Below the pieces are notes generated by a model that was not told the DNA's origin, did not search any database, and was given only the letters and a program-made list of their open reading frames with translations. The translations under genes and the position numbers were made by a program. A stretch of DNA of 45,791 nucleotides from Salisapilia sapeloensis (taxonomy: Eukaryota > Oomycota > Peronosporomycetes > Peronosporales > Salisapiliaceae). Position 1 is the first letter of the stretch. Every line of letters begins with the position of its first letter. The DNA lies in the NCBI GenBank assembly GCA_023334545.1, contig JAADVB010000155.1, positions 1 to 45,791 on the forward strand, in the 5' to 3' direction. Shown here piece by piece: positions 541-37,642 of the stretch.

Positions 541-3060
541 TTATGCTTTCAACTGGTGCATGTTGGAATTCAGCTGCTCTACCATGGCCTTGGTTTCCTC
601 GATGAGCTGCTCCTCTGCCTTGAGCACGTCATGGCAGATACGTTTCTTTTCCTGAGGCAGGTGCGACGGCGACTTGGTCGTAATGTTCTTGGCCTCTCGC
701 GTGTCTCTTGTCTGCTTCAGTGCCTCTATCTGCAGTTGGGAGATCCGTGGCTGCAGTCTACGCATCTGCACAGCCATCCTTTCCAAGTCGGACCGATACT
801 GTCTCTCAGCTCTCGAAAGTCGTGGCTGGTTCTCCTTTAGGGCCTGGAGCACAGCCGCCGCTCTCTTGCGCAGGTTGCCCTGGATGGTCTGCGCCTTGGC
901 CACTTTCTCGTCCAGTTTCGTCATGTTGGTATGTAGCTGGCGTACTTGCGTCTGGAGATACGTGGCATTCTTCTTGTGGTTCTGGAGCATCTCTTGGTGG
1001 AGTTTGGATCTGTCCGACAGGATCTGGTCAAGCTCCTCCACGTACGCCACGTCTTCGTACAGAGCCTTGACTCTCTCTAAAATGAACTCTAAGATGCGAT
1101 CATCCACTTCATGCATCTTGGTCGATCCTTTCACTCGAATGCCTCGAGGTGCCAAGGCACTGGCCTTGTCCTCGACCACGTCCTCCAGACGCGTCAGTTC
1201 GTTCTTGGCGGAAGAAGACGGAGGAGGGGAGCTCTTGACTGGTCGAGAGAAGGTGGAGGTTCCTAGTGGACTCTTGTGTTCGTCCGCAGATCCGAAGAGG
1301 ACGCTACGGAGGAGGTTGCTGGAGGTGGCGCTGATGTTGAGAATGTCAAAGCTGCCAGAGTCGAGACGGAGGACCAAGAGATGGCCAAAGTCTACATTCT
1401 TAATGACGCTGGCGCCCACGACGCGACTGTCGACGGCAGGAGAGACGCTGAAGATGTGTCGGACGGGGCTCTTGGGAAGACTGGAAAAGTTTTTCCCGGC
1501 ACAGAGCTCCAGCGCCCAGCCGACGTTCAAGACGTGTATGCCAGAAGCGTAGGAGACGTAGACGAGTCTAGGGTCAGCAGGGTCTCTCATGAGCGTCGGG
1601 CTAGTGCCTTCCTGTGCTTCAAGTCCCAGGTCGATGGACTCGAGCAGCAGTCCAGAGACTTTGGACGAGATGCCGAGCTTGGACTGCTGCTCACTCTTCC
1701 ACTGGGGCTGGATAGGAGCGTCAGGAAGCACGAGTTCCACTAGGCCAGAGGAAAAGCTTCGGATGAGGACTGGAGGCAGGATGGCAGGCGACTGGCCCAA
1801 GAGACCAGGAGGCATGGCTAAAAGAGAGGTAGCAACTCCACTCCTCTGCTTGTCGTACTTGACAGACACATCGGACGTGTCGATAGGTCCTTGGATAGCC
1901 ACAGGCCAGGACTCGGCACTCACGCCCGTCTCGTGGGACGGCAGGAGCTTTGCCAAGCCCTTGGGTGTCGTCCGCCACGCCTCCTGCAGCCAGAACTTGT
2001 GCGACTTGAGCTTGGCGATGGACGCTCGAAGCGTCTTCTCCGACGTGGACGGACGCTGGGTGGACCTCTTGCTCTGGACACCGACCAAGGCTCCGCCTGT
2101 CGTGGACGTGTGGCGGAGGTCGGATATGGCCTGCTCCTCCTCGAGCTTCGCGCGTTGGATAGCCAGCTGGGCAGACACTTCGGAGCGCAGAGAGGAGAGT
2201 ACGTTGGCCTGGATGTGGCAGCCGGATGGGACGATGGGACAGAGAGCGTAGATGGTGCCGTCGGACCTGAGGACGTAGCAGGTGAAGATCTCCCAGAGAC
2301 CCAGCTGATGCTGTTTGGTGGAGAACGCAGATGGGTGGAAGCAAAAGGAGGTGGCGGCAGGACGATAGCGAGAGGAAGAGTTAGCGTCGGCGTCGTCAAA
2401 GTCGAGCGCATAGGTCTGCTCTGGCGTAGACGGATCCTCCTGGACGTTGAAGAGAAGCAGCTCGTCTCCATCAGTCAGGACCATGGCGTGATGTGGAGAG
2501 AGTGGGTGCCATGCGACGTGGTTGACGCCTCCAAAGTAGCCCACTTGATCCAGACTACTAGAGCCCATTTCTTTCGATACAGCAGCAACCTTCTTGGACG
2601 TAGAGAGACCTTTAGCGCCTAGTACCTGCATCACTTGGTCATTGGGAGGAGTGCTAGAGTATGCTGTTTCTGTCGTAAAGGCCTGGACACTTCCGTCGTC
2701 CAAGTGAGCTGCAAAGGCGGTGGTTGGCGTGGAGGCCGAAGGAGGCAGTTGGACTGCACGGACGCGCTGTCGGCTCTGGAGTAAGACATAGGATCCAGAG
2801 GCGTTGACTCGGATGCTCTCGATCTGCGATAGCTCGTCGGGCGAGAGAGGTGGCTGGAGAGACACGTGCTCCAACGATTGCGTGCTCTGGAAGAGTGGCA
2901 CGAGGTACAGGCGACTCGGGTCGTTGCCTAGGAGCACCATTCTGCCGGAGCTGTCCATGTCAAAGGTTCTGTAGTGTTGCTTGGGGCCAGCAGAAGGCGG
3001 CAGGACGGCTCCTGCGAGCTGCAAAGCCTTCTCGAGCTCCCACTCGCCTTCCTTGCTCAT
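541..3060 (-). CDS. NUP88: Nucleoporin NUP88 homologue
   Basis: Predicted 839-residue nuclear pore protein. In animals Nup88 sits on the cytoplasmic face with Nup214/Nup62 and supports export and mRNP remodelling. The N-terminal two thirds look like a beta-propeller with Nup88-style strands (GGVNHVAWHP, then a LTDGDELLLFNV strand near residue 200; a SDGTIYALCP strand further on). The last 200 or so residues are highly charged heptad-like coiled coil containing an NQPRLSRAE segment that aligns by eye with the human Nup88 C-terminal coil. It is longer than the 741-residue human protein, mainly through Ser/Pro-rich inserts. I chose the ATG at 3060 (MSKEGEWEL); the frame stays open upstream but without an ATG. 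No introns are seen. Family assignment rests on architecture and scattered motifs. Confidence 0.8.
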   Translation of the reverse strand: MSKEGEWELEKALQLAGAVLPPSAGPKQHYRTFDMDSSGRMVLLGNDPSRLYLVPLFQSTQSLEHVSLQPPLSPDELSQIESIRVNASGSYVLLQSRQRVRAVQLPPSASTPTTAFAAHLDDGSVQAFTTETAYSSTPPNDQVMQVLGAKGLSTSKKVAAVSKEMGSSSLDQVGYFGGVNHVAWHPLSPHHAMVLTDGDELLLFNVQEDPSTPEQTYALDFDDADANSSSRYRPAATSFCFHPSAFSTKQHQLGLWEIFTCYVLRSDGTIYALCPIVPSGCHIQANVLSSLRSEVSAQLAIQRAKLEEEQAISDLRHTSTTGGALVGVQSKRSTQRPSTSEKTLRASIAKLKSHKFWLQEAWRTTPKGLAKLLPSHETGVSAESWPVAIQGPIDTSDVSVKYDKQRSGVATSLLAMPPGLLGQSPAILPPVLIRSFSSGLVELVLPDAPIQPQWKSEQQSKLGISSKVSGLLLESIDLGLEAQEGTSPTLMRDPADPRLVYVSYASGIHVLNVGWALELCAGKNFSSLPKSPVRHIFSVSPAVDSRVVGASVIKNVDFGHLLVLRLDSGSFDILNISATSSNLLRSVLFGSADEHKSPLGTSTFSRPVKSSPPPSSSAKNELTRLEDVVEDKASALAPRGIRVKGSTKMHEVDDRILEFILERVKALYEDVAYVEELDQILSDRSKLHQEMLQNHKKNATYLQTQVRQLHTNMTKLDEKVAKAQTIQGNLRKRAAAVLQALKENQPRLSRAERQYRSDLERMAVQMRRLQPRISQLQIEALKQTRDTREAKNITTKSPSHLPQEKKRICHDVLKAEEQLIEETKAMVEQLNSNMHQLKA

Positions 3061-5399
3061 GCTTGTGCGTTTGATCGGTCTGGTGTGAAGTGACAACGAT
3101 TGGTGCAAAGTACTGTTTTTGCACGATTTTGATCGAATCGGAGCGGAGTGGAAACTTGGGCGAGATACTTGTCATGGACGCGAGTACTCTTCAAGGCTAT
3201 CTGCCTTATTGATCTAAAGCTAGGTGTGTGGAAGATCATATCGTTTGGATGGTGTGTTGGATTCTAGTGTTGACGACGTTTGTCGAGCTATCAGGCTACT
3301 CCGATCTCTTTCTTTTATTAGACTCGGATGTGAAGAGACGAGCTGCAGTCTTGAAAGTCTCTTTAAGAGTATTCGCACTGCATATGTCTAAACAGAGCCT
3401 TCACACGTCAGGATGGCTTTCATAACCGGTAGCTACTACTGTGAGGAAATAGCCCCGCTAAGCTACAGCAAAGTCACTTTTTAAAAGCATCAAGCATCAT
3501 TCATAGTAGCTACAGATGTCAACGAGTACTCAAGTATGTAGCTATATCGTCTTATACTGCGAAAGATTTGTATTTGTTGCGCAGATAGGCAAGTCGCATT
3601 CTATAAATACAAGCTTTAAAAAGACTCACCCATAGTGCCAGTTTCTACTTTCTAAGCAAGACTTGCTGTATTATGATTCTTTGTTTTGCTGAAGAGATAG
3701 TATAGAGCTAGATTTGTTGCTGTAAGAGGAGCTTCTCTGATAAAATACAGCCTAGTTCAAGCTCTACCATCTTTCCGCCTTTGGTAAGCAAAATAGTCGA
3801 ATCGCTATGAAGTACTTGTTACATTCGATAATTCCTAGGGAAACATGGCATTATGCTATATTCATGGGGTACGCAACGTTCATATTGGATTATGTGAGAG
3901 GCTTTCATGTAGACTTCCAGCATCTACCAAATGATTCCAATTTCATTTACATGGATAAAGTTACTTTCTTTGAAGTGTACGCTGAAGATCTGAAGGCCTG
4001 TACAAAGCAGATATTAACAAAGACTCCGGTCATTTATGTCAGCATCAGAGTTCTCTTGTCTGTCATGCTTTATGTAGAGGTCTTCAAGCTATTTGCGCTA
4101 GAGAGTAGTTGAGTCGCTGAATGTGCATTGCCGACCTACTTTTAGAACAAAGGCTTATCTCGATTTATTTTCAGATAGACACGCTTGGGCTACATGATGG
4201 GAATGCTCGAGACGATGAGGTGTACAATCACATACATTAGTTTTGTGCCAACATGGCTAAGGAATATCGATTTTCATTTCGTACAAGCTCCTATGTCTCA
4301 CTACGGTAGTAGCTTGATCATTAACAACTAGTTTGCGAATTATGAAAGCATTGGAGAGCTTTAGCAGCCTCTAGGGTAGATCAAAATATCCAAGTGTATT
4401 GAATGTAGATCAACAACTTGGCACTTCTACCCATGCTCGACTTAGGATATATTACCATCGGCAGAAATAGCGAATACCGTGATGTACATCACACATCGTG
4501 AGTAACCCGAGTAAATGTTTCATCTCCAAACAAACAAGCTAGTATCAGTAGCATTACATGAACACTCAGCGCAGCAAATTTTCCGCATTGCACGATGTAC
4601 GTATTGTTCGCATCACGACGAATTTCAAGTGTCTGCTAAAAGTGATATCGTTGAGGCAGAAGAGGACATGGAAAGGGTCGCTTAAAAGAATCTGCTTGTA
4701 CTATTTCATGCGTCTAGCCAGGTTCGGCGAGCGAACAGATCTTTTATCTGTTTGTGCTGCCGAAGATGTAACATGCTTGTTTATGCCACTCAACCGTGTA
4801 ATGAACAAACTCCAAGTAAATGCTCGCTTGCATTTCCATACGATTGCATGTAAGTTATCGGGTACTACGAATACATCAACCGATTTCGTTTTCAAGCTAC
4901 ATGCAGTTTAAAGCAACGATTTTTGTAGCACCTACATGGATCACAATCAACCTCTAGCGAGGTACGAGCAAAGATTACTCAGCTCTAGACCTGCTTCCTT
5001 ACGGATGTCTTGACGCTTTTGACGCGAGAGCATTCGGTGTAAATACACATTCATCTGTCCATCGACGCTCCCCTGATGTTAACAAAGTGAAGCCGAATGA
5101 TATCCATCCAATTTCTGCTTCTCTACGCTTCTCATTCCATGATCTCATCGGTTTCATTCGGATCTTGTGGAAGCGCGAGGATGAGCATGTCCCAAGTTCC
5201 CGCGAAATGACGCCGCTAGTACGCAAACGAATGACGATTAAGTCCTTATCCCACACAAGAGTTCCTTCAAGAACCTCGTCTGAACCAAATGGAAACTTGG
5301 AGACAATTACAAGAGCCCGTTATCTCGACTACTACCTTTTACCCTCAACTCAATACACAACGCGAGACTCTTGACTGCATGTCATTGTCACATTAGAAA
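3061..5399. other. 2.3 kb AT-rich intergenic gap
   Basis: This stretch separates the 5' end of NUP88 from the 3' end of VPS41. It is clearly richer in A+T than the flanking genes. ORFs of 101 codons (3807-4112) and 117 codons (4558-4911) occur, but their codon use is unlike that of the window's genes and their products resemble no family I know. I see no tRNA, transposase, long terminal repeat or tandem array. Words such as 'gtagctac' recur around 3430-3540 without regular spacing. It may be decayed mobile DNA, but nothing here proves that. Confidence 0.5.
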
Positions 5400-8300
5400 C
5401 TAAACAGGTAGCGACAAGTGGTCTTTGGCTCTCTGGAGCTGTTCTTGCGAGACGCCTCGTGGGACCATGGCACTGTCGAGTAGCGCAGCAGCATCATAGG
5501 AGCCTCCTTCCGCAAACGTCCGTGTCGAGTGGTCGCACACAAAGCAGCCAAGACTCTTTTCCACTGCGCTCAGGTCGCCCATGTCCACGACCTCTGCCTT
5601 CTTCCACATCCGCAGTCTCTCCGACAGACACGACAGGTGGTACGTATGCCCACACTCAAAGACAGCGGCATGACTCGCATGCGCCACTTGCGATCCGGAC
5701 GGCGCCGTGGGTTTCAGTGGTTCGAGACACAGGCAGCAGACGGCGCGTGCCTGGACATGCCTAGCGCGTCTATTCCTCTGCACTTGTTTCCGCAGCAAGT
5801 CGTTGCGATCATGCTGCAGCACCTTGGTCGCACCGTCACATAGATGCTGTTGGATGCGGTAGTTGGACAGGAGATCCAGGAGTTTGGTCTTGAGGTCGTC
5901 GATCTCGATGTTCGAAGGGAGTTTCTTAAGCAGTTGGATCGGATCGATCTGGTGCTCCAGAGCGAATTGGAACAGGACGTGGACATTGTCCTTGTTCGTG
6001 AGACTGGCGTCGAGAAGGTAGTCCCATAGACTCGGGTCGTGGTCCTGCACGAACTGGATGGCTTGCTGGATGTCCTGCTTTTGCGTCAGTATGAGATCCA
6101 CGGCCTTCTTCTTCTCTCCCAAGCGTCCTAGGATGTAGATCATAGCTTCCCACTGCGGAGGCTCTTGCTTCGAGCAGAGATCGTAGGCTTCCTGCAGCGG
6201 GACGACCGTGCTCGTCTGGAGGAAGTGCAGCAGGTTGTCCGGATCGAACTGCGCATACAGCTGCACCTGTCTAGCGTGCAGAGGCGCGTGCACTTCCGTG
6301 TTGTACATTTTAAAGTGGTGGAGGAAGACCTGGTGCAGGTATAAGTGCATCGCTTCTAGGTCGTCTTCCAGTTGCTGCACGACGTCTCGTATCGGCAGCT
6401 GCTCCGTCTGGTTGCTCAGCATCCGGATGGCTGCGTGTCGGTCCAGCTGGAGGAGACTTGGGACCTTGTGCTTGACGAGTGTCCAAAGCTGGTGCTCTGA
6501 GATGAGGCGGAAGGCCTTGTCTTTTTGCGTGCAGAGGGGGCCTTGGCTCAAGTAGATGCGCAAAGCTTGGTCCGGCTGGTCTGTTGCGGCGTAGAGCTCT
6601 GCCAGTGCCTCGAGCAGACACGACGTCTCCATACTCGGACTGGTCGCCTCGGACGTCCTCCTCCGCCGGATGCTCAGCTGCAGCTTGTCGATCCACTTGG
6701 CCGGGTCGTACAGAGGCTCAAAAACGTGTGTCTGGCCATCAGTGTACTCTGTCCGGACGACCTGCGTCTCGTCCTGTGCCCTCGGCGTCGGCCACTTTTG
6801 GATCAGGTCGAGGAGAGTGGACGGGTCGGCGTCGAGGAAGTGGGAGAGCACCATCTCGTAGACGGCGACTGGGAGCCGCGGACTGGCCGTCGGGATCTGC
6901 CTCGCGATGGCGCCGAGCTGGTTCTTCTGACTGAAGACGTACACATACTTTTCCCACATCTCTCCGTATTCGTCTCCTACGAGCAGTCGCTTGATCTCGT
7001 CCGCAGCCTTCTGGAAGTGCTTGCTGCCGATCAAGTCGGCAATGTACTTTTCCATTAGGTCTTGCAGCGAAGTCGAGTGGAGAGACGACGGGTCTCTCAA
7101 CGCCAAGTCCAGCGCCTGGCTAAAGTCCTGTCGGTCGAGCGCGTACTGGACTCTGTCGTCGACGTCTCTCGTGCGACACAAGACGACGTCCTTGGGGGTA
7201 CACAGATAGGCCAGTCGCCCGATGCCAGACTCCTCTAGCCTCGTGTAGTTCGAGAGAGCACTGTCGGGGAGATACTGGAGACTCGGCATCTTATAGTCCG
7301 ATGCACGGAGGCGCTGGTAGCCCTTGAGCCGCAGTAAGTCCGCTGCGAGCTGCTTGCCGTCGAGTCCGACGACGTGGACCTCTGGCAGCGGCATCTCGGC
7401 GCTCTCGCCCTCTCCTTCGACCTGTCGCTGGTCTCTGGAAGAGTTCACGGACGTCGAACCAGGAGGACGGAAGGCGAGGAGGCAGACGGCGTGGTCTCCC
7501 CACGGACTCAGGCCGGACAGAAAGAAATCAAAGGAAAGCAACGCGCCGATCTCTGCCTTGATACTAGAACTTTCACTCGAGCTAAAGTCTTGCGGCGTGT
7601 CGAGTGTCGTGGGGGACACGGGCGTGTCGACTGAGCTAAAGGTCACGACGCGGAGCGTATGCGCCCACCCGATGAGCAAGACGCCGGGCTTGTGCCAGAC
7701 TAAATGACATCGACAGAGCTCGATCGGAGGGCAGTTCGGAGGCTTTTCGAGGTACGTCACGCGCTGTTCTCGCACCGTGTCGTAGACCTTGACGCCAAAG
7801 TCGTTGGCCCAGGCCAAGAGTCCGTTCTTCCACGCGATGCTTTGGATCGGCCCCTCTCCTTCATGCAGCGTCGTCTCTCGGTCGATGATCCACCCTCGAC
7901 GATTCAGCATCAACTGCCCAGACACGCCGCCGCAGCAAAAGTTCCGCTCGCGCTTGACGGCGTACTCGTCTTCGAGCTGGACGCTGTAGATGGCGCTAAA
8001 GTAGTTGTACACGTTCACTTCTCCACCGGAGGAGAGGTGAGAGCTGCGTGAACTGACAGCGTCTGGAGGCTGAGCAGGAGACGACGCGTGGGGGCGGAGG
8101 GCCGACGGCGTCTCGGCCGCTGGTGCGAGTGAGATGGACGCGACGGTGCCGTCATCCGAGCACGAGGCAATGTGCTTTCCCGTCTCGTCGATGTAGACGT
8201 GGTTGACCTTTTTATAGTGCTGATGCAAGCGACGTAGGAAGCGTCCATCGAGCTCTAGGAGCAGGACGCTCCCCTTGTAGGTCCCGACGCAGCAGAAGTC

Positions 8301-10489: not shown

Positions 10490-12524
10490 ATGGACGGGAA
10501 CGATGACGAGGGCGCTGTGCAAGGCCGCGTGACGGGTATCATCTACCCTCCGCCAGACGTACGAGCTCGAGCGGACATGACAGCCAAGTTCGTAGCTCGA
10601 AACGGCCGTAGCTTTGAGAATCGTATCGCCGGGGAGGCATCGTCAGCCAAATTCTCCTTTCTACGCGATGCTGACCCGTATCACGCGTACTATGAGCACA
10701 TGATCGAAGAGTACTTGAAGCAGCTACAAGAAGAGGCTTCGAATCCACCTCAAGCGAAAGAATCTGCTGGTTCAGAAGCGCCAGAAGCACCCAAGGAGCC
10801 TGCATCCGCCGAAGCAGACAAGACGCAGGATGTGGTGGCCGAGAAGGAGGCAGTGGAAGACGCGACTGCACGTGCGGCTAAAAAGGTCAAGGCCCAAGGT
10901 CCTTCGTTAGAAAAGCCGGCGGATGATATATACCGTCTGCAGCACCCGAAGCTCAGTGCGATGGACCAGGAGATCATGTACTTGACAGCTCAGTACACTG
11001 CATTAAACGGTAAGACGTTTCTGGCCGGCCTGGCCACACGAGAGCAGCGGAATCCTCAGTTTGACTTTCTAAAGCCATCGAATGCTCTGTTTGCGTACTT
11101 TACAGCGTTAGTCGAAAGCTACGTGCATGTGATTCAGAAAGAATCGACGCAGTTGGACAAAGTGACGAAAGGGATGGAGCGGATGCACGTGCTAGACAGG
11201 TGTGTCCATCGGATGGAGTGGGAGCGAGCGGAGGAAGAGCGCAAGGAGCGGGAGAAGGCGGAGAACGACGCGGAGCACGTGGCACAGGCGCAGATCGACT
11301 GGCAGGACTTTGTCGTGGTGGAGACGATTACGTTGGAGGATGACAAGGAGGAGGAGGTGATGCCTGTGACAGAGGATACGCAGATGGAAGATGTGCAGGA
11401 GCAGGAGGAGGAGCAGGATGCACAGGTCAAGGTCGTAGAGGACTACACTCCCCAGGCGTCTTCTTCCAACCACACCGCTCAGACAGTGACAGTCGACGGC
11501 CGGACGATCCCTGCGACGGACATTAATGAGCACATGCGCATCTTACTCATGAATCCTAAGTGGAGGGAAGAGCAGCAGCGGCATTTAGATAAGCAAAAAG
11601 AGAGTTCGTATGCTGCTGGGTCTGCTATTGCCGACTCCTTACGTCGATTCGCGACCAAGCGAACGGATATCTTTGGTAGGGCAGAGCAAGACACGTCGAA
11701 ACAAACGCAAGCCCAAGGTGCGTACGGTCCGACTATCCCGGTGGAAGAGCAGGAAAAGTATGAAGAAATGAAGGAAGAGGCATACTTTCCTCCGCCCATG
11801 GAAAACCCTCCTCCTCCGCCACCTCATTCCATGCACATGCACATGCCGCCAGGGATGCCTCCAGGCCCCCCAGGTCCTCCAGGTCCTCCGGGTATGATGC
11901 CTCCTGGACCTCCTGGACCTCCTGGACCTCCTGGACCTCCTGGTATGGCTCCAGGACCTCCGGGTATGGCTCCTGGTCCGCCTGGCATGCCTCCGTCTGC
12001 CCCTGGTCCGCCTGGGGTGAGTGGTCCACCGGGTGTGGGTGGTCCGTCTGCGCCTGGTACGGAAGGAGAGCCTCCGTCGAAGAAGCAGCGTACGGACGGC
12101 GCGGCGTTGCTTCCGGAAGAAGAGTTTGCAGCACTGCACCCTGTATGTATCTTTATGATAGGAACGTAGGAGGTTTGCTGACTTATGTGTGCAACAGGGC
12201 TCTGTGCGCTTCGTCGTCAAGGTTCCGCACGACACGAACAACAGTCAGTGGAAGCTGCTCGGCCAGACGCTGACGGTCGACATTGACGTCAAGGATCCGA
12301 TGCGCGTCATCAAGGACAAGCTATCGGTAACTATATGTGTAGATACTGGAGGAGAGGAAGCTCATGTGTGCTTATAGGAAAAGTTGGAGGGGATGCCACC
12401 GAGCAAACAGCAATTGAAGGCGTCGATGGGATTCATCAAGGACGGTCGGTCGGCTGCGCACTACAACTTTATTAACGGAACGACGTTGGAGCTGAGCGTT
12501 CGGTCGAGAGGAGGACGGCGTTAA
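10490..12524 (+). CDS. SF3A1: Splicing factor 3A subunit 1
   Basis: SF3a is part of the U2 snRNP and helps position U2 at the branch point. The predicted 642-residue protein starts with GIIYPPPDVRA, followed by two SURP modules (about 30-76 and 163-213, each with the F..R.G..F pattern and a PY-type aromatic end), a helical Prp21-type region with charged stretches, a Pro/Gly-rich linker and a C-terminal ubiquitin-like domain (about 552-642) ending in SRGGRR. Three exons: 10490-12142, 12198-12326 and 12378-12524. Introns of 55 nt (GTATGT...ACAG) and 51 nt (GTAACT...ATAG) both fall inside the ubiquitin-like domain and are phase 0. Human SF3A1 is 793 residues. The stop lies 33 bp from the HSCB stop on the opposite strand. 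Confidence 0.93.
11846..12051 (+). repeat. Collagen-like PPG codon repeats in SF3A1
   Basis: Imperfect 9-nt repeats of the type 'cctggacct' encode runs of PGPPGPPG, PGMAPGPPG and similar triplets between the SF3A1 helical region and its ubiquitin-like domain. SF3A1 is proline-rich here in other eukaryotes too, but the near-perfect Gly-X-Y register gives a collagen-like look. Repeats of this kind tend to vary in length between strains. Confidence 0.8.
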
Positions 12525-15047: not shown

Positions 15048-18000
15048 ATGTGGCGAAGGAGAGGCTCGTTCAGTGGCTTCCTCGCTCGCAACAATAATAA
15101 TAGTGAAGACTCGCCCGTCCTGCGCACATCCATCTCGTCTTCCGGTCGATCCAGCACGTTTTATGGGCACGACGACCAGGATCGCTCGCTCGTCTTTTCG
15201 CTCGAAGTCCCGACGCCAGGACCGCTCGGGCTCGACCTTCGTGCGAGGCATGTCGAGCGAGATAAACCGCAGAGAGGGGCGTACGTCAAGGGGTTCCGGC
15301 GGCTCGCAGGAGACGAGAAGGGATATGTGGAGCAAACAGGTCGCGTCAAGGTCGGCGACATCCTCGAGACCATCCATACGACAAAAGTAGACGATATGCC
15401 GTTCGACCAGATCGTCAAGCTCGCCAGTCAGTTGCAAAAGGACGAGACGGCGTGGCCGCTTCGGCTCGAGTTCTGTCGACAGCCGGCGGAATACGGCGAT
15501 AAGTCGAGCAGGAGAGCGCGTAGTTCGAGTTTCTTCCGCGCTGCATCGAGTCTAAACCCAGCGCAAGACAAGTCATTTAATGAAAAGCTCCAGTACTTTC
15601 GCGGGTTCTTTGCGAGCCGCCTTCCGACGGGCGGAACGACCCCGAAGGAGCATGATAAGGACAAGGTGCCGTCTATGCCTGCCGCGGAGACGGTGAATGA
15701 GATGTATAGAGACTTGCTCGTCAAGCGCGACGTACCGGAGGATGTGCTGGAAGAGCTCGTGCGCATCGAGACGCTAGAGACCAAGTGGCACGTCGTGTGG
15801 TACGGCCAGGTACACGAAAACAATAGTGCTTCGAAGAACCAGGCAGATAGCGCCGAAGCAGGTCGCATGGCCGAGGCTTTAGTAGAGCTCAAGTGGGACG
15901 GCCGAGGGCTCAAGGTGCTGGACAAGCTGCGCAGTAAGATGTCTGTGGCATCGACCGAGTGGATCGAGTCCTTCTTGGCGAACTTTGGTCTGGACTACTT
16001 GTCCATGAAACTGCCAGACCCGTCTCCTTTTTCCATCGAACAGCACAGGTATGACCGAGCGACACGCATCTGCGAAGTGATTCTCCGGACGCTCCGAACG
16101 ATCACACACTTTCCAGAAGGCGTGGAAGCCTTGACCCGTATGCCAGGTCTCGTGAACCGCGTCGCCCTTTGCTTCCACACGGAGAGTGGGGACTTGAAGA
16201 AGTGTGCGCTGCAGCTGCTCGGGATCGTCTGCTACAACAGTGCAGAAGGCCATCAGACCGTGATCGCCGCGTTTGACCACTATAAAGAAGCCAAGGGCGA
16301 GCAAGTCCGCTTCGGGTGTCTCCGGGACGCGCTCAAGTCGACTCGATACTCGCTCGTGTTCAAGGAAGAGGTCCTGAGCTTTGTCAATGTCATCGTGAAC
16401 AAGGCGATTCGACTCGAAGACCGTCTCGAGATCCGAGCAGACTTTATGGCGCTCAAGATGCCAGAGTACTTTGAAGAGATTCGGGCGAAGAGCCTCGCCG
16501 TGCAGCGGAAGCAGTCCGAGATGAGCGACTCGCCGCTCGAGAACTCGTCTCCGATGGCCATGGCGAGGTTGACGCCGCAGGAGTCTCCGGAAGTCCGAGC
16601 GTCGGCCAAGACGCTGCTGTCTCCTGTGCCCGTGGCGAATGGCGGGAGTCCTCCTGTCGGTCGAGCCGCCACGCCGTCGCCTCGTCCGGGGAAGAGCCAG
16701 CGACTACGGAGACGGAGGGTGCAGAGCAGCGACTATGGTGCGTTAGTCCGTTCGTCGAGCAAGAGCGCTCCTGCGTCTCCTGCGGATTCGCTCGACTCTG
16801 TTCCGTCGTCTCCTGCGCCGTCGATTTGCCGATCATCCTTGGCATCGAACTTTGATCGGCCGAGTACACCGTATAGCTACAGCAACACTGCGTCCCAGCT
16901 GCGTAGTCAGTTGGACAACATGGAGAAGCAGATCGACGTGTTCGAGCGGTTCATGGAGGACGACCGGAAGGACACGATCTACGACGAAACGGATCTGTCG
17001 GACGTCGAGAGCGTCTTCCGGTCGCTCCGCCGAAGCGTCTCGAATGACGCCGAGGTAGAAGCTGCGTTTCTCTCTCTCTTACAGCAGCTTTTATTAATCC
17101 CGGCGGATCGAGTGATTGGGAAGGAGATGTGGGGGCTGAGTGAGAAGCTGATGAAGCAAGTGGCGCACTTGACGCCAGTGGAAGAGGTGCGGAACTTTGA
17201 GCTGGGCTACGACGACCGTAAGGCTCTGTTGCAGATGCGAGACCGATATACGCGCTTCTTGGAGAAATGCGCGGAGGAAGACCCGTCATTCCGGTATCGC
17301 ATGGGGACGATCATTGTCCTGGACAACCAGCGGCCGGAGGATGAGCTGACGCCGTCGGAAGACACGGCAGAAGAGACGGATGAAGAGGACTTGCCGCCAG
17401 ACTCGATCATGGCGAAAGACCATCCGGACCTGAGCAAGTACTTTAAGCTGCTCAAGATGGGGACGCCCAAGGCGCAGGTGCAGGAGCGGATGAAGCACGA
17501 GACGAGAGGCTTTGACGTTGCCATCTTGGACACGCCGGAGCGGACGGTGCCTGTGGGGGAGATCATGGATATTACATCGACGCCGGTGAGCGTTTCATCC
17601 GAGCCGCAGGCCAAGGTCGAAGAGGTCAAGGTGAAGGGGACGAGAGCAGAGGAGCATGACAAGTATAAAAAGTTCTTCAAGCTGTTAAAGATGGGGATGC
17701 CGACGGAGCATGTGGAGCTCAAGATGTCGTCGGAAGGGCTGGATGGTGCGATTTTGAGTACGCCGGACGTCTTGTTGGATGAGGAGGGGCAGGAGGTGAA
17801 GGAAGAGGAGGGGAAGAAGGTAGAGGAAGAGCGGAAGGAGGAGGGCGTGTGTGTCAAGGACCATCCAAAGTTCTCCAAGTTCTTTAAGCTGCTCAAGATG
17901 GGGATGCCGATGGAGCACGTCAAGCTCAAGGCTTCTTCCGAAGGGTTGAATACAGATCTACTGGATGCTCCTGATACTCGTCTAGATGAAGAAGGGAATG

Positions 18001-20981
18001 TCTATGAAGAGAAGGAAGACAAACAAGGTACGCCTGTCAAGGACCATGCAAAGTTCTCCAAGTTCTTCAAGCTGCTCAAGATGGGGATGCCGATGGAGCA
18101 TGTGAAGCTCAAGGCATCGTCGGAGGGGTTGAATACAGATCTACTGGATACGCCGGATGCTCTTTTGGATGAAGAAGGGAATCCTGTCGGGAGTAAAAAG
18201 GAAGAAGCAAAGGGAGTTCCTGTGAAAGAGCATGAAAAGTTTGCTAAATTCTTTAAGTTAATGAAGATGGGGATGCCTCTAGAACAAGTCAAACTCAAGG
18301 CATCGGCAGAAGGGTTCGACGCGAGTCTCTTGGACTCTCCGGATACGCTTCTGGATGAAGAAGGCAAGCCTGTTACGAGTGGAAAAGAGGTAGCGACTGG
18401 GACGCCTGTCAAGGAGCATGAGAAGTTCGCCAAGTTCTTCAAGCTGATGAAGATGGGGATGCCTTTAGAACAAGTCAAGCTGAAAGCTTCGGCGGAAGGG
18501 TTCGACGCGAATCTCTTGGATACGCCTGACACGTTGCTGGATGAAGAAGGCAAGCCAGTGGGTGCTTCAGAGGAGGCACCCAAGGGGACTCGAGTAAAAG
18601 AGCATGAAAAGTTCGCCAAGTTCTTCAAACTGCTCAAGATGGGGATGCCGACGGAGCAAGTTAAACTCAAGGCGTCTGCAGAAGGTCTGAATGCGGATCT
18701 TATCGATACGCCAGATGCTCTGGTGGATGAGGACGGCAAGCCAGTCGAAGCGTCTAGTGACAAGCCCAAGGGCACGCCTGTCAAGGAGCATGAAAAGTTC
18801 ACCAAGTTCTTTAAACTGATGAAGATGGGGATGCCTTTAGAACAAGTCAAGCTGAAAGCATCTGCAGAAGGTCTGAATGCCGATCTGCTGGACACGCCGG
18901 ATAAACTAGTGGATGAGGAAGGCAAGCCAGTCGAAGCGTCGAGTGAAGAGGTCAAGGGGACGCCTGCCAAGGAGCATGAAAAGTTTGCCAAGTTCTTCAA
19001 GTTGATGAAGATGGGGATGCCTCTGGAGCAGGCCAAGCTCAAGGCGTCTGCTGCTGGACTAGATGAGAGTATCCTCGAGACGCCGGACAAGCTCCTGGAT
19101 GAAGACGGAAAGCCGGCGGGAGGAGCCAAGGTCCAGGTGAAGGACCACCCGTCGTACGCCAAGTACTTTAAACTGATGAAAATGGGCATGCCGCTGGAAC
19201 AAGCCAAGCTCAAGGCGTCGGCAGAAGGTCTGGACGGAGCGCTTCTCGAGACGCCAGACAAGATGATTGCAGAGGACGGAGGGAGTGGGCCGAAGGAGTC
19301 TGCTGGTCCTCCGAAGCCGAAAGCGCCGCCCAAGCCCAAGCTCCGGAACTTGTACTGGGAAGCAGTCAAGGAGGAGGAGGTGGGCGGCACGATCTGGGAC
19401 GAGGTGGTGGACCCGCGGAAGAGTGAGGAAGAGGACAAGGAGGATGCTGCGCCCGTGAACCCGTTGTTTGCGCAGCTCAAGGCCAAGAAGACGGAGGAGG
19501 AGGAGGAGGAAAAGCCGGAGAGCAAGCTGCTCGAGACGTACGTGAAGAAGCTGGAGGAGGTGTTTGTGAACAAGCCTCCGAAAGCCAAGGCGAGCGAAGG
19601 GAAGAAGAGCACTAAGAAGAAGACGCCGGCGAGAGTGGCGCTCATCGACGTCAAGCGAGCGAACAACATTGGCATCATGCTCGCGCGCTTCCGTCTGCCG
19701 TACCACAAGGTTAGGAATGCGGTCTTGACGGTCGACAAGGAGATCCTATCGTCGGAACGCGTGTCGTCGCTCATCCAGTTCTGTCCGGAGAAGGAGGAGC
19801 TGGAGACGGTGCAGGCGTATACGGGCGACCCGAAGCTTTTGGGCGACGCCGAGCAGTTCTTCCGCGAGCTCTTGTACGTGCCTCGATTGGAGACGCGGCT
19901 CAAGGCGATCCACGCGACGTGGCAGTTCGATTCGTACGTGTCGGAGCAGAAGAAGCTGATGGAGAGCATCTCGAGTGCTTGTCAGGAGCTGCAGAACTGT
20001 GGTCACTTGAAGGAGATCTTCAAGGTCGTGCTGTCGCTCGGGAATGCCTTGAACGATGGGACGGCAAGAGGCGGCGCGAAAGGCTTTCGACTGAGTATCT
20101 TGTTAAAGCTGAATCAAGTCAAGGCGAGTGATAACTCGACGACCTTGTTGAATTACGTCGCCAAGGTCTTGAGGGAGAAGGATCCGGCGATTCTAGAGTT
20201 TGATAAAGAGCTTCCGTCGATCGAGAGTGCTAGTCGAGTGACGCAGCAAGTGCTTACGGCGGGAGAAGCGGCCGTTCGGAAGGCTGCGACGGCGATTATC
20301 GGTGAGTTGGATGCGCACGCGAAGCTCACGGACAAAGACTATGTGTCTCCTCCCACGCCTGCGACGGAAGAGGAGAAGACAGAGGAGGATGAGGACGAGG
20401 AGAAGAAGGTCGCGAGCGATCGGTTCCAGGCCGAGATTGGTCCGTTTGCCCAGCGAGCAAAAGAAGTGTCGGAGGAAGTCGCGCAGGAGCTCGAGACGAC
20501 CAACAAACAATTTGAGGACACGGCCAGGTTCTTCAGTGAAGACCCGACGAGCAAAGAATGCGGTCCCGATGCGTTCTTTAACATCTTTTACTCGTTCGCA
20601 AAGGTGCTGCAGACGGCCGATCGGGATAATGAACGGAAGCGCATCGCGGAAGAGCGGCGGATCCGGAGAGAAGAAGAGACCAAGAAGCGGCTGGAGAAGC
20701 TTAAGAACAAGAAGAAGCAGAATAGCTACGCGGCGCTCAAGACGGGCGACGTGGACGATATTGTCAAGCAGATTCGGAGCAAGCGGACGGCCGAGAAGCG
20801 GCAGGGTCTTGCGAGCGACGCGAAGAAGGCGGAGGAGAAGGAGCAAGCATCTCCGGCCAAGTCGCCGACGCAGGCAAGAGAGAGTGACCCGACGTCCACG
20901 GCGCTCGTCCGGTCGAACCCGAATCGAGCTGTTGGCAACCTGAAGCGGCAGAACGGCAACTCGGCACTTGCGTCAAGCTGA
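15048..20981 (+). CDS. Formin: PDZ, FH3, ten WASHC3-like repeats, FH2
   Basis: Single-exon actin nucleator/elongator of 1977 residues. In order: a basic Ser-rich N-terminus; a PDZ-like domain (about 46-136); a GBD/FH3-type helical regulatory region (about 175-480, helical again at 620-760 after a Ser/Pro linker); ten repeats (791-1412); a very short proline segment (PPKPKAPPKPK) in place of a real FH1; an FH2 domain (about 1420-1870, starting LRNLYWEAV...GTIWDEVVDP, with LGNALNDGTARGGAKGF as the FH2 core motif); a basic coiled coil; and a DAD-like tail (about 1900-1925, GDVDDIVKQIRSKRTAEKRQ). FH3 plus DAD suggests Rho-type autoinhibition. The start is the ATG at 15048 (MWRRRGSFSG). The near-absence of FH1, normally the profilin-binding feeder, and the repeat array are unusual. 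Formin identity is firm; the roles of the PDZ and repeats are inferred. Confidence 0.95.
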   Translation: MWRRRGSFSGFLARNNNNSEDSPVLRTSISSSGRSSTFYGHDDQDRSLVFSLEVPTPGPLGLDLRARHVERDKPQRGAYVKGFRRLAGDEKGYVEQTGRVKVGDILETIHTTKVDDMPFDQIVKLASQLQKDETAWPLRLEFCRQPAEYGDKSSRRARSSSFFRAASSLNPAQDKSFNEKLQYFRGFFASRLPTGGTTPKEHDKDKVPSMPAAETVNEMYRDLLVKRDVPEDVLEELVRIETLETKWHVVWYGQVHENNSASKNQADSAEAGRMAEALVELKWDGRGLKVLDKLRSKMSVASTEWIESFLANFGLDYLSMKLPDPSPFSIEQHRYDRATRICEVILRTLRTITHFPEGVEALTRMPGLVNRVALCFHTESGDLKKCALQLLGIVCYNSAEGHQTVIAAFDHYKEAKGEQVRFGCLRDALKSTRYSLVFKEEVLSFVNVIVNKAIRLEDRLEIRADFMALKMPEYFEEIRAKSLAVQRKQSEMSDSPLENSSPMAMARLTPQESPEVRASAKTLLSPVPVANGGSPPVGRAATPSPRPGKSQRLRRRRVQSSDYGALVRSSSKSAPASPADSLDSVPSSPAPSICRSSLASNFDRPSTPYSYSNTASQLRSQLDNMEKQIDVFERFMEDDRKDTIYDETDLSDVESVFRSLRRSVSNDAEVEAAFLSLLQQLLLIPADRVIGKEMWGLSEKLMKQVAHLTPVEEVRNFELGYDDRKALLQMRDRYTRFLEKCAEEDPSFRYRMGTIIVLDNQRPEDELTPSEDTAEETDEEDLPPDSIMAKDHPDLSKYFKLLKMGTPKAQVQERMKHETRGFDVAILDTPERTVPVGEIMDITSTPVSVSSEPQAKVEEVKVKGTRAEEHDKYKKFFKLLKMGMPTEHVELKMSSEGLDGAILSTPDVLLDEEGQEVKEEEGKKVEEERKEEGVCVKDHPKFSKFFKLLKMGMPMEHVKLKASSEGLNTDLLDAPDTRLDEEGNVYEEKEDKQGTPVKDHAKFSKFFKLLKMGMPMEHVKLKASSEGLNTDLLDTPDALLDEEGNPVGSKKEEAKGVPVKEHEKFAKFFKLMKMGMPLEQVKLKASAEGFDASLLDSPDTLLDEEGKPVTSGKEVATGTPVKEHEKFAKFFKLMKMGMPLEQVKLKASAEGFDANLLDTPDTLLDEEGKPVGASEEAPKGTRVKEHEKFAKFFKLLKMGMPTEQVKLKASAEGLNADLIDTPDALVDEDGKPVEASSDKPKGTPVKEHEKFTKFFKLMKMGMPLEQVKLKASAEGLNADLLDTPDKLVDEEGKPVEASSEEVKGTPAKEHEKFAKFFKLMKMGMPLEQAKLKASAAGLDESILETPDKLLDEDGKPAGGAKVQVKDHPSYAKYFKLMKMGMPLEQAKLKASAEGLDGALLETPDKMIAEDGGSGPKESAGPPKPKAPPKPKLRNLYWEAVKEEEVGGTIWDEVVDPRKSEEEDKEDAAPVNPLFAQLKAKKTEEEEEEKPESKLLETYVKKLEEVFVNKPPKAKASEGKKSTKKKTPARVALIDVKRANNIGIMLARFRLPYHKVRNAVLTVDKEILSSERVSSLIQFCPEKEELETVQAYTGDPKLLGDAEQFFRELLYVPRLETRLKAIHATWQFDSYVSEQKKLMESISSACQELQNCGHLKEIFKVVLSLGNALNDGTARGGAKGFRLSILLKLNQVKASDNSTTLLNYVAKVLREKDPAILEFDKELPSIESASRVTQQVLTAGEAAVRKAATAIIGELDAHAKLTDKDYVSPPTPATEEEKTEEDEDEEKKVASDRFQAEIGPFAQRAKEVSEEVAQELETTNKQFEDTARFFSEDPTSKECGPDAFFNIFYSFAKVLQTADRDNERKRIAEERRIRREEETKKRLEKLKNKKKQNSYAALKTGDVDDIVKQIRSKRTAEKRQGLASDAKKAEEKEQASPAKSPTQARESDPTSTALVRSNPNRAVGNLKRQNGNSALASS
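17418..19283 (+). repeat. Ten tandem WASHC3/CCDC53-like motifs
   Basis: Ten copies of a segment with the core KFxKFFKLxKMGMP, then E-x-V/A-KLKAS-x-EGL-x3-L-L-D/E-TPD, and usually LDEEGKP. Copies start at about 17418, 17649, 17856, 18039, 18225, 18411, 18597, 18783, 18969 and 19140. The five steps from 18039 to 18969 are exactly 186 nt (62 codons). Copies 3-4 and 5-6 are almost identical, so duplication or conversion is recent; the first copy is the most diverged. The pattern (Y/F-K-L-KMGMP, EGL, LLD-TPD) matches the conserved motif of the WASH-complex subunit WASHC3/CCDC53 as I remember it (KMVQVGVP...EGLDPDLL). Confidence 0.9.
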
Positions 20982-34734: not shown

Positions 34735-37620
34735 CTACTCTTCTACATCCCCTAGATACCGTACTTGACCATGAGCAACTTGGATAAGTCCATCGGCTTC
34801 CAGTGCTCGTAATGCTGCTTGGAATTCAGACGTCCCGACCTCCGATCCGTTCGCATTCTCCTCCACGAGCTTCCGTAACTCCGAGATAGTGATCGACGTC
34901 GAAGATCGTTTCACATGCTCCGTTAAAACGTTGCGTACATCCTCCAGGAGCGCCTGTGTCGCCTCTCGCTCTCGACCGCTATGACCAGTCTGGAGCAAGT
35001 CCATATCGATCGTCCCGGTGCGTGGATCCAGAGCTGAGCGCTGTGTCGCTACATTCATCAGCCGCAGCGCTTCATCGACATCTGCCCGCCCGACGCTCTC
35101 GGCTAGTTTCATCCGCGCTAACGCCTCGGACAATCGAATGAGCGACTCGAGTTGCCGCGGTGTCGCCGTGATCGTCTTCTTCGTCCGGCCTCCGAGTCTC
35201 CTCAGATCGAGATACGCACTCAACAGCGCTTCTCTCGCACCCGCCGACAGACGTGGATGCACCTGCTTCTTCGTGTATGCAATGTACTCTGTCAATGTCG
35301 CCATGGGAATGATCTCTTTCGTCTCTCCATCCGATCGACTGCCATTCGCTCGATCGTAGTAGAGCGACACAATGTGCTTCGCCAGGCGTCGATCGCTTTC
35401 TGGCTGTGGCTTGTCTAGTAGCAAGTAGATCAGATCGAAACGCGAGAGGAGTGTCGGGAGGACGTTGACGTTCTCAATCACCGACTTGTTCGGGTTATAT
35501 CTCGACTCGATCGGATTCGCGGATGCGAGGATCGATGCACGGGCGTTGAGAGAGCAGATGATGCCTGCCTTGGCGAGAGAGACCGTCTGCTGCTCCATGA
35601 CTTCATGCAATACACCACGTGCCGAGTCGGACATTTTATCGAACTCATCGATACAGCAGACACCTTCATCGGATAGAACGAGAGCGCCGGATTCAAGGAC
35701 CAAGTCGCCTGTTTCGGCGTCTCGAACGACACTTGCGGTGAGACCGACGGCTGAACTGCCTTTACCAGAGGTGTAGATCGATCGAGGCGATAGCTTATGG
35801 ACGTAGGAAAGGAGCTGGGACTTGGATGTACCTGGATCACCACACAACAAGACGTTCACGTCTGCTCTGGCGCCTGATTTACTAGCGAGAGGTCCAGACG
35901 CAGTGGATTCATCTCTTTCCGACGGGCGGATGGTGTTCCCATGTCGATCTTTCCGTGTGCCTCCGAAGAGCATGCACAAGATGCCTTTCTTAACGTCATC
36001 CATCTCCCAGATCGATGGCGCTAAGGACTCTGCTAGGTTCTGATAGACGTTCGGGTGTCGAGCAATACGTTCAAACTCTTGTACTTTGTACGGACTAAAG
36101 CCATGCCTACTTTCCATCGGTACATCCGAAGGTGATCCATCGACTGAAGCATGTGCCAAGGCATGCGTCACGTCAGTTGATGGTGTCTCATCCGCTCGAC
36201 TGAGTTCATCGACACGACGGAAGTGGACGACGTCGACATAGGTTTTAAAGACGCTCTTGACGACGCGCTGTCGACTGGAATTCCGCAGTGGGACGGCGCG
36301 ATAGATGCCAGTGACTTCGACTTTATCACCAGGACGCACGGCATCCACGAGGTCATCGAACGCAAAGAGCATGACCGTGTACGGCGTCTCACCTTCAGGA
36401 ATCGCATCCGGGGTCTCCTGCATCTTAATCAGTTGTTTATCAGTAAAGGCACATCGGTTATGGATCATCTCCATGCTCGCTCTCGAGTTACAACGTTCAC
36501 AGAAGCCAGGTTCATCAATCCGACCACGATCTAACGCGACAGTCGTCGAGTAGTGGCAGATACCACATCGGAAGAAGGCTTCTTTCAAGTCTGGGATCAA
36601 CGCACTGCATCGCGTGACCATGCCTTTAAGACGGACCAATTGGTCGATGTCGCTTGGGTTGAGACTTCGCATCGGGCTCTGGTCACGAAGGTTGAACGGA
36701 CGTACTTGCAGCCTCAAGCTCTCTTCTTCACTTTCCGAGGGTGCGAGAGTCCGGTATTCCTCTTGGATGACCATGTCGAGGATACGAATGAGTACTTGAG
36801 GGAAGAGAACGAGTTGGTTGTATAGTTTGCGTGTCGGAGGGTACTGGATCAAGTGCTGTGCATCGAGGTCTAGGACAGAAGATTGGGACATGGCTAGCTG
36901 TCGGAGCTGGTGCAAGTACTGTGTGTCGCCGTGGAAACCGGACGTGTCTCGACCACGGAAGGCGTGGACAAAGTCTCGGAAGAGCTGCATGGACTCAGCG
37001 ACACTGATGTTGGTGCCCCATACGACTGCGCCGTTGAAGGACTGCTCATTGTCTCTGGCAGTACGAGCAGAAGCGGAGAAGGATGGAGGCGAATGTGGTT
37101 CGGATGGAGCACTGCTGGTCGGTGATGCTGGTGGACGAGGCAGTGGCGCATCGCCACCGTCTGTCTGTTCATTTCCGTTCACCTCGGCGTTCATGTCGTC
37201 GTCTTGTCGACCGATCCGCCACTCGGAACGACCTAAATCACCTCGTGGAAGCTGTCGCTGAGCCATTCGCCGTAGCTCGGCCTCGACATCATCTTCATTC
37301 TCATCGTCATTAGCGTAGCGACTCAAGTAGCGAGGCGCAGAGGTGTTGTCGACGGAAGTGCTCATTTCAGCAAACATGGATGGGTTCTGATCGGTCGCCG
37401 AGACGGCGGACGCGGACACGGATTGTGCCGATGTCGGGGATGGAGGGCTCGGAGGCGTTGCTGGCAGCTCTGAGTCGCCATTGTTCATGGATGTGTTTGC
37501 TTCGATGGTGGACTGCGTGTTTTCACCTGTCGACGCAGTGTTCGTATTGTCTACGGATGAACTAGGAGACGGTGGTGTTGCTGGTGGAGCACCCATGTCG
37601 ACATCGTCATCTTGGTCCAT
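34735..37620 (-). CDS. MCM4: MCM4 replicative helicase subunit
   Basis: 961 residues, single exon, ATG at 37620 (MDQDDDVDMG). MCM4 is one of six subunits of the MCM2-7 helicase loaded at origins in G1. Visible: a disordered Ser/Thr/Pro-rich N-terminus, the usual target of DDK and CDK; the C4 zinc finger C352-x2-C355 ... C374-x2-C377; Walker A GDPGTSKSQ at 594-602; Walker B CCIDEFDKM; the EVMEQQT and LNARASILASANPIESRYNP segments; the arginine finger LLSRFD; and a C-terminal winged helix. ANPIESRYNP followed by ENVNVLPTLLSRFDLIYLLLD favours MCM4 over its paralogues. The TTG-initiated extension to 37653 overlaps the E2F-like site and is unlikely to be used. Confidence 0.96.
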   Translation of the reverse strand: MDQDDDVDMGAPPATPPSPSSSVDNTNTASTGENTQSTIEANTSMNNGDSELPATPPSPPSPTSAQSVSASAVSATDQNPSMFAEMSTSVDNTSAPRYLSRYANDDENEDDVEAELRRMAQRQLPRGDLGRSEWRIGRQDDDMNAEVNGNEQTDGGDAPLPRPPASPTSSAPSEPHSPPSFSASARTARDNEQSFNGAVVWGTNISVAESMQLFRDFVHAFRGRDTSGFHGDTQYLHQLRQLAMSQSSVLDLDAQHLIQYPPTRKLYNQLVLFPQVLIRILDMVIQEEYRTLAPSESEEESLRLQVRPFNLRDQSPMRSLNPSDIDQLVRLKGMVTRCSALIPDLKEAFFRCGICHYSTTVALDRGRIDEPGFCERCNSRASMEMIHNRCAFTDKQLIKMQETPDAIPEGETPYTVMLFAFDDLVDAVRPGDKVEVTGIYRAVPLRNSSRQRVVKSVFKTYVDVVHFRRVDELSRADETPSTDVTHALAHASVDGSPSDVPMESRHGFSPYKVQEFERIARHPNVYQNLAESLAPSIWEMDDVKKGILCMLFGGTRKDRHGNTIRPSERDESTASGPLASKSGARADVNVLLCGDPGTSKSQLLSYVHKLSPRSIYTSGKGSSAVGLTASVVRDAETGDLVLESGALVLSDEGVCCIDEFDKMSDSARGVLHEVMEQQTVSLAKAGIICSLNARASILASANPIESRYNPNKSVIENVNVLPTLLSRFDLIYLLLDKPQPESDRRLAKHIVSLYYDRANGSRSDGETKEIIPMATLTEYIAYTKKQVHPRLSAGAREALLSAYLDLRRLGGRTKKTITATPRQLESLIRLSEALARMKLAESVGRADVDEALRLMNVATQRSALDPRTGTIDMDLLQTGHSGREREATQALLEDVRNVLTEHVKRSSTSITISELRKLVEENANGSEVGTSEFQAALRALEADGLIQVAHGQVRYLGDVEE

Positions 37621-37642
37621 TTGAGCTGGAGGCGATCGATGG

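What the first reader, a model, noticed from the sequence alone, without database searches (positions are those of the whole stretch)
15048..20981. Formin whose FH1 is replaced by a ten-copy WASHC3-like array
Seen: a GBD/FH3 region and an FH2 domain separated not by polyproline tracts but by ten repeats of a motif (KMGMP...EGL...LLDTPD) found once in WASHC3/CCDC53, the small WASH-complex subunit. Only an 11-residue proline segment remains before FH2. Known: FH1 recruits profilin-actin; WASHC3 belongs to an Arp2/3-activating endosomal complex. Inference: the array could be a multivalent docking or actin-monomer-feeding module joining formin and WASH-type machinery, a design I have not seen described.
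Basis: partly seen in the sequence, partly recalled or inferred. Interest (0 to 1): 0.85.

Follow-up and report, generated by a model that had tools for sequence, protein, structure and literature searches.

The report
Formin with WASH-motif array replacing FH1
This gene, from a likely oomycete (water mould), encodes a formin, a protein family that builds actin filaments, with ten copies of a small motif from the WASH endosomal actin complex where the usual proline-rich segment would be; similar arrays sit at the same place in formins from diatoms to water moulds, where they likely deliver actin or dock partners in place of that segment.

Summary
One 1,977-residue ORF (15048-20981, +) encodes GBD/FH3, ten copies of the C-terminal motif of WASHC3/CCDC53 (Pfam PF10152, E 1e-88) and FH2 (E 2e-85). 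Only PPKPKAPPKPK stands before FH2; the longest proline run in the protein is two. One motif from this genome's own coiled-coil WASHC3 scores 137.8 bits on the array, against 9.6 for the best of 2,000 shuffles. The design is not unique to this gene. All three FH2 loci found in this genome carry the motif, and so do 318 of 324 FH2 proteins from three similarity-biased searches, including oomycetes, diatoms, other ochrophytes, labyrinthulids and a bicosoecid (the other six: three animal proteins, three truncated entries). In the 318, no motif follows FH2, 308 lack a five-proline run, and copies lie about 61 residues apart. AlphaFold2 predicts each copy as a compact three-helix mini-domain with no PDB match. 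No profilin was found in this genome, and a 2015 survey found none in Pythium ultimum or two diatoms. I favour a stand-in for FH1 that brings actin monomers to FH2, probably without profilin. The ligand is untested; docking to WASHC3's partner is a close rival. My paper searches found no description.

The parts
15048..20981 (+). Formin gene, single ORF, 1,977 aa
15675..16235 (+). GTPase-binding domain (Drf_GBD, residues 210-396)
   Evidence: E 2.1e-08, 34.3 bits against cut-off 30.1
16251..16487 (+). FH3 (Drf_FH3, best stretch, residues 402-480)
   Evidence: E 5e-18; PDB chains of FMNL1/2, INF2 and mDia1 match in this region
17415..17540 (+). CCDC53 motif copy 1 (most divergent from its neighbour)
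17652..17768 (+). CCDC53 motif copy 2
17856..17975 (+). CCDC53 motif copy 3
18039..18161 (+). CCDC53 motif copy 4
18225..18344 (+). CCDC53 motif copy 5
18411..18530 (+). CCDC53 motif copy 6
18597..18719 (+). CCDC53 motif copy 7
18783..18905 (+). CCDC53 motif copy 8 (54-residue unit around it folded alone: pLDDT 89.9)
18969..19091 (+). CCDC53 motif copy 9
19140..19262 (+). CCDC53 motif copy 10
17852..19051 (+). DNA tandem repeat, period 186 nt, 6.5 copies
19308..19340 (+). Residual proline segment PPKPKAPPKPK, all that stands where FH1 would be
19314..20609 (+). FH2 domain (profile match; its first residues overlap the proline segment)
   Evidence: (E 2.1e-85); model matches mDia1 and DAAM1 FH2 structures
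20745..20807 (+). DAD-like C-terminal stretch (aligned with the mDia1 C-terminus; no Pfam DAD hit)
   Evidence: alignment; no Pfam DAD hit

Best explanation
This is a Diaphanous-type (GBD/FH3) formin with ten copies of the WASHC3/CCDC53 C-terminal motif where the polyproline FH1 would be, each predicted to fold as a small three-helix domain, and the array likely does FH1's job by binding actin monomers, directly or on a carrier other than profilin, and handing them to the adjoining FH2. Shown by sequence: the architecture, the lack of proline tracts, the placement N-terminal to FH2 in the related formins examined, the regular spacing of about 61 residues, and purifying selection on the copies. 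Predicted: the mini-domain fold. Inferred, untested: actin as the ligand, delivery to FH2, and the link to an absence of profilin.
For: Position: with a strict motif criterion, 1,659 motifs lie upstream of FH2, 0 downstream and 6 at the boundary, in 318 proteins with both (looser criterion 1,702, 0 and 7 in 321). No canonical FH1: 308 of the 318 have no run of five prolines from first motif to 150 residues past the estimated FH2 start, and 0 of 318 have a 40-residue stretch there with 40% proline; the three animal FH2 hits used as yardstick all have runs of five or more, with peak 40-residue proline fractions of 0.65, 0.33 and 0.55, against 0.23 in the window protein. Regular beads: 80% of 1,411 spacings lie in 55-70 residues, median 61. 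Compact domain: three repeats modelled with FH2 have mostly pLDDT over 90 in their helices, one unit alone pLDDT 89.9 and pTM 0.66. Selection: of 36 pairs among window copies 2-10 (copy 1 left out), 25 gave a synonymous distance and all have dN/dS at or below 0.32 (copies 5-6: dN 0.028, dS 2.2); 11 were saturated. Lysines at motif positions 8 (93%) and 11 (86%) hint at a common ligand. Profilin: none found in this genome, while cofilin and CAP were found by the same method; PMC4501334 (2015; [quoted passage not shown] In this genome's WASHC3 both motif copies follow runs of several prolines.
Against: No call shows actin binding. Single units do not match Pfam's WH2 model, and the predicted compact fold is unlike a WH2 peptide. 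The profilin absence is weak: the search is exon by exon in an assembly of unknown completeness, and no genome with a known profilin could serve as positive control; I also recall, unseen, a 2015 paper whose title names profilin in diatoms. In the same survey the brown alga Ectocarpus is among the species with profilin by exclusion, yet an Ectocarpus entry has a six-motif array, so array and profilin can coexist. Three Pythium insidiosum formins have an 8-proline run beside the array (P0027, P0029, P0030) and P. oligandrum a 5-proline run (P0013). WASHC3 carries the motif and has no FH2. The survey sample was chosen by similarity to such arrays.
Confidence: 0.4

Rival explanations
1. Docking array: the copies bind whatever the WASHC3 C-terminal motif binds, likely another WASH-complex subunit or an endosomal factor, and so would recruit or cluster formins where WASH works; monomer supply is by diffusion.
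For: The motif is shared with this genome's WASHC3. A second formin of this genome (C298) has a FYVE reading frame just upstream of its three-motif frame, and named relatives of that class carry FYVE and the motif in one protein, which points to endosomes. WASH and the Arp2/3 subunit ARPC2 are present.
Against: The window formin shows GBD/FH3 and no FYVE hit. A dock could sit anywhere, yet none of 1,665 strict motifs lies after FH2. Up to 11 copies at near-constant spacing look more like feeding than docking (judgement). The strumpellin search did not complete.
Confidence: 0.29
2. Profilin route kept: a profilin exists and PPKPKAPPKPK (or longer tracts in relatives) is a minimal FH1; the array does something else, such as autoinhibition or dimer spacing.
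For: Some Pythium entries keep 5-8 proline runs at this spot. cannot prove absence, and Ectocarpus appears to have both profilin and an array.
Against: The longest proline run in the window protein is 2, and in five Aphanomyces, Saprolegnia and Albugo relatives the link has only single prolines. PMC4501334 reports no profilin in P. ultimum.
Confidence: 0.14
3. Unknown regulatory ligand (for example Arp2/3 complex, or an internal FH2 or GBD contact) bound by the copies, used to switch the formin.
For: Conserved lysines; GBD and a DAD-like tail suggest regulation.
Against: No call identifies such a partner; ten copies are more than a switch needs (judgement).
Confidence: 0.12
4. Neutral spacer: an expandable repeat that only separates GBD/FH3 from FH2.
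For: Copy number varies (6 in an Albugo relative, 8 in most Phytophthora and Pythium entries, 10 here, up to 11).
Against: dN/dS at or below 0.32 in 25 of 25 computable pairs; 18 of 18 units still match PF10152; the motif recurs before FH2 in several stramenopile branches.
Confidence: 0.05

Closest known systems
Diaphanous-related formins (mDia1, DAAM1, FMNL, INF2)
   Same: GBD/FH3, FH2 and a DAD-like tail
   Different: No polyproline FH1; ten CCDC53 motifs stand in its place
WASHC3/CCDC53, WASH complex subunit
   Same: C-terminal motif of PF10152
   Different: No match to the N-terminal part of the profile; the motif is repeated tenfold and fused to FH2
FH1-less Dictyostelium ForC and stramenopile PTEN-formins (PMC2386819, passages and section 7 seen)
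   Same: Formins with a missing FH1, or with lineage-specific added domains
   Different: Table 1 of that paper scores stramenopile formins FH1 '+' as a group and lists PH, C2, PTEN, ANK and WW, not CCDC53
Tandem WH2 nucleators (Spire, Cobl; recalled, no call)
   Same: Works-like: several small modules in series near an actin nucleator
   Different: Units match PF10152, not WH2; predicted as compact three-helix domains

Membership tests
Formin | FH2 domain | tested here: met
   E 2.1e-85; model matches DAAM1 and mDia1 FH2 structures, E about 1e-16
Formin (canonical FH1-FH2) | Polyproline FH1 next to FH2 | tested here: not met
   Longest proline run 2; link is PPKPKAPPKPK; peak 40-residue proline fraction 0.23
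Diaphanous-related formin | GBD/FH3 | tested here: met
   Drf_FH3 66.1 bits, Drf_GBD 34.3 bits, both over cut-off
Diaphanous-related formin | DAD at the C-terminus | tested here: inconclusive
   Residues 1900-1920 align with the mDia1 C-terminus; no Pfam DAD hit
WASHC3/CCDC53 | C-terminal motif of PF10152 | tested here: met
   10 stretches; 18 of 18 single units; own WASHC3 motif against shuffles
WASHC3/CCDC53 | N-terminal coiled-coil part of PF10152 (profile positions 1 to about 85) | tested here: not met
   All ten window matches start at profile position 86 or later; the genome's own WASHC3 on C113 matches 3-120
WASHC3/CCDC53 | Assembly into the WASH complex | not testable with these tools
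   Needs biochemistry
WH2 | Match to the WH2 profile | tested here: not met
   No WH2 hit at E up to 10 in 18 single units; the own-genome WH2 search rang at two other places over cut-off and one weak place, not in the array
Known folds in the PDB | Structural match of the single unit | tested here: inconclusive

The most novel reading that the evidence does not exclude
Stramenopiles replaced the profilin-polyproline system of formins: the WASHC3/CCDC53 motif is a so far unrecognised actin-monomer-binding domain, arrayed in front of FH2 as a profilin-free feeding device from oomycetes to diatoms, labyrinthulids and bicosoecids, and its single copy gives WASHC3 in other eukaryotes the same undiscovered function inside the WASH complex.
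Probability: 0.24. Interest if true: 0.92.

Novelty: new variant of a known kind. Interest (0 to 1): 0.73.

Why it matters
FH1-profilin delivery is the textbook route for formins (recalled). Formins from several branches of one large eukaryotic group, the stramenopiles, carry a different module in that slot, conserved in position and spacing, and a published survey found no profilin in an oomycete and two diatoms. If the module binds actin monomers, it would answer how such organisms elongate filaments without profilin and give the C-terminal motif of WASHC3 a function. If it docks, it would show formins and WASH sharing a partner. One pull-down and one actin-assembly assay would tell these apart.

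Tried and rejected

Limits: the three protein searches were seeded with array-plus-FH2 or array sequence, so 318 of 324 is not an unbiased rate for stramenopile formins. Each scored only the 7,980-7,987 candidates sharing most words. One search listed all 117 hits, one search listed 120 of 426 and 120 of 215; only listed proteins were analysed (337, plus the window's own, 338). My first count (321 of 324) included P0138, P0139 and P0140, entries that begin inside a motif and that Pfam does not score as CCDC53; the strict recount sets these three aside, leaving 318, with three animal proteins as the other FH2 entries without motif. 14 of 338 carry the motif without a detected FH2; some are labelled partial. 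The estimated FH2 start can lie too far upstream in divergent proteins, so the proline count was repeated with a 150-residue margin; the result stayed at 10 exceptions. 25 of 318 have a five-proline run somewhere in the whole protein.

Full report
OBSERVATION. The ORF at 15048-20981 (+) encodes 1,977 residues without a frame break. Pfam finds Drf_GBD, Drf_FH3, ten stretches of PF10152 (CCDC53) and FH2. The ten copies are KFFKLxKMGMPxEQVKLKASAEGLDxxLLDTPD-like units; six of the nine spacings are 61-62 residues, the others 57, 68 and 79. At the DNA level a tandem repeat of period 186 spans 17852-19051. Between the last copy and the FH2 start lies GSGPKESAGPPKPKAPPKPK; the longest proline run in the whole protein is 2. 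The FH2 part of the model matches DAAM1 and mDia1 FH2 structures.

IS THE WASHC3 LIKENESS REAL? Pfam could be circular if oomycete formins helped to build the family. I therefore used a motif from this genome's own WASHC3, a protein on contig C113 that matches the N-terminal part of PF10152 (profile 3-120). It scores 137.8 bits on the array; the best of 2,000 shuffles reaches 9.6 (1,507 gave any score). Unit by unit it scores 17.3-25.5 bits against at most 10.9 for 1,000 shuffles each. All 18 single units tested (10 window, 8 from elsewhere in the genome) match PF10152 alone; none matches WH2 or UBA. [quoted passage not shown]

THE GENOME. The assembly holds 19.5 Mb in 452 contigs and has no name. 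Every hit with an organism name among the 114 motif-bearing hits is an oomycete, so the source is likely an oomycete. FH2 was found at three loci, and all three carry the motif: the window (10 copies), C298 (3, with a FYVE reading frame just upstream and ZNF598 PAH domains downstream) and C431 (1, with PHD- and phosphatase-like hits below cut-off upstream, and four short DPRxAMLSQLLAxR-like repeats). WASHC3 on C113 has two motif copies, each after runs of several prolines. C420 encodes a further protein with three motifs. WASH, ARPC2, cofilin, CAP and two clear WH2 matches are present. Profilin PF00235 gave no candidate, which is suggestive only. Strumpellin could not be searched.

RELATIVES. 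One search found 117 proteins, of which 114 carry the motif. Entries of the window's class in Phytophthora and Pythium have 8 copies (one partial entry 7), Aphanomyces and Saprolegnia 7-11, Albugo 6; the FYVE class has 3 (one entry 2). Searches extended this to diatoms (Cyclotella, Thalassiosira, Skeletonema, Seminavis, Nitzschia, Cylindrotheca), Triparma, Pinguiococcus, Chrysophaeum, Hondaea, Mucochytrium and Cafeteria; the lineages of Cafeteria, Hondaea, Chrysophaeum and Pinguiococcus were looked up and are stramenopile. An Ectocarpus entry, labelled partial, has six motifs and no FH2. One search was scored on the array alone, yet 110 of its 120 listed proteins (of 215 hits, length range 916-2,914) carry FH2. 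Over all 338 proteins (337 listed plus the window), with a strict motif criterion, 318 of 324 FH2 proteins carry the motif; the six others are three animal proteins and three entries cut off inside a motif. 1,659 motifs lie upstream of FH2, none downstream, 6 at the boundary; 80% of 1,411 spacings lie within 55-70 residues, median 61. 308 of 318 have no run of five prolines between first motif and FH2, and none has a 40-residue stretch with 40% proline there. Seven of the ten exceptions have their run within 150 residues after the last motif, three of them Pythium insidiosum with eight prolines. The sample is biased toward array-bearing formins.

STRUCTURE AND SELECTION. With repeats 8-10 plus FH2 as one chain and 52 sequences, AlphaFold2 gives mean pLDDT 84.4, with the helices of each repeat mostly above 90 and three short helices per repeat; stretches between repeats score lower. 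One unit alone gives pLDDT 89.9, pTM 0.66 and the same helices. No PDB fold matches. Across 1,638 distinct units, strongly conserved positions include two lysines (93% and 86%), two glycines (91% and 85%) and two prolines (91% each). Among window copies 2-10, 25 of 36 pairs have computable dS and all have dN/dS at or below 0.32; the other 11 are saturated. The copies are held by purifying selection, which argues against a mere spacer.

HOW IT MOST LIKELY WORKS. Canonical formins speed elongation because FH1 proline tracts catch profilin-actin and pass it to FH2 (established knowledge, recalled). Here that slot holds beads of a predicted folded motif on linkers that are net acidic over the sample. 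[quoted passage not shown] The reading I favour is that the array stands in for FH1 and brings actin monomers, directly or on a carrier such as cofilin or CAP, without profilin. Against certainty: there are no binding data, WASHC3 carries the motif without FH2, some Pythium keep a proline run, and Ectocarpus appears to have a profilin as well as an array. Docking to WASHC3's unknown partner is nearly as plausible, helped by the FYVE class of the same family. I lowered the main reading from 0.42 to 0.40 on recheck because of Ectocarpus.

WHAT IS KNOWN. PMC2386819 (2008; passages and section 7 seen) scores stramenopile formins FH1-positive as a group and lists PH, C2, PTEN, ANK and WW, not CCDC53; its additional files were not seen. 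PMC3298513 (2012; passages) describes WH2 patterns and mentions CCDC53 once. The WASH review PMC8047104 (2021; passages) describes CCDC53 as the BRK1-like subunit; the passages seen give its C-terminal motif no function. Searches for CCDC53 with formin and FH2 found 0 papers; CCDC53 with formin found 10, none on this by title (listing only); formin, stramenopile, FH1 and profilin found only PMC2386819. The library lacks most subscription papers. Databases do show the two Pfam domains together, one entry labelled 'Formin Homology 2 Domain/Subunit CCDC53 of WASH complex', so the pairing is annotated but, as far as these searches show, not described.

VERDICT. A real, conserved variant of a known family with a plausible and testable new mechanism; architecture near certain, mechanism about 0.4.

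Noticed in passing
L030 (G000:C431) 4612-8274, - strand: A third formin has four short repeats DPRxAMLSQLLAxR besides one CCDC53 motif before FH2; similar short repeats are seen in diatom-like formins (P0113, P0114, P0236 before FH2; P0185 after it). By eye they resemble the helix half of WH2 and may be a second monomer-binding module.
   Followed up: partly
P0129, P0130, P0137-P0140: Six formin entries close to the diatom-like P0113 carry a Costars domain (PF14705) after FH2; Costars is, from recall, an actin-binding fold.
   Followed up: no
L027 (G000:C113) 2498-4141: The WASHC3 of this genome alternates proline runs with two copies of the motif behind its coiled coil.
   Followed up: partly
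L028 (G000:C420) 3505-5267, - strand: An unnamed protein with three diverged copies of the motif and no FH2 seen in the frames read.
   Followed up: no
window 34738-37653 (-): An MCM helicase (MCM4 type) lies near the formin; in a Phytophthora kernoviae and a Peronosclerospora sorghi entry the formin model also holds MCM domains, which suggests conserved neighbourhood and merged annotation. The C298 formin also has an MCM-like neighbour by eye.
   Followed up: no
P0097: A Phytophthora cactorum FYVE-formin is labelled 'WASH complex, subunit CCDC53' in a public source, a misnaming likely caused by this motif.
   Followed up: no
window 15048-15647: The N-terminal 200 residues look PDZ-like by eye but have no Pfam support.
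   Followed up: partly
window 541-3168 (-), 5400-8225 (-), 10490-12166 (+): Other ORFs of the window match Nup88, Vps41 and SURP/PRP21.
   Followed up: no
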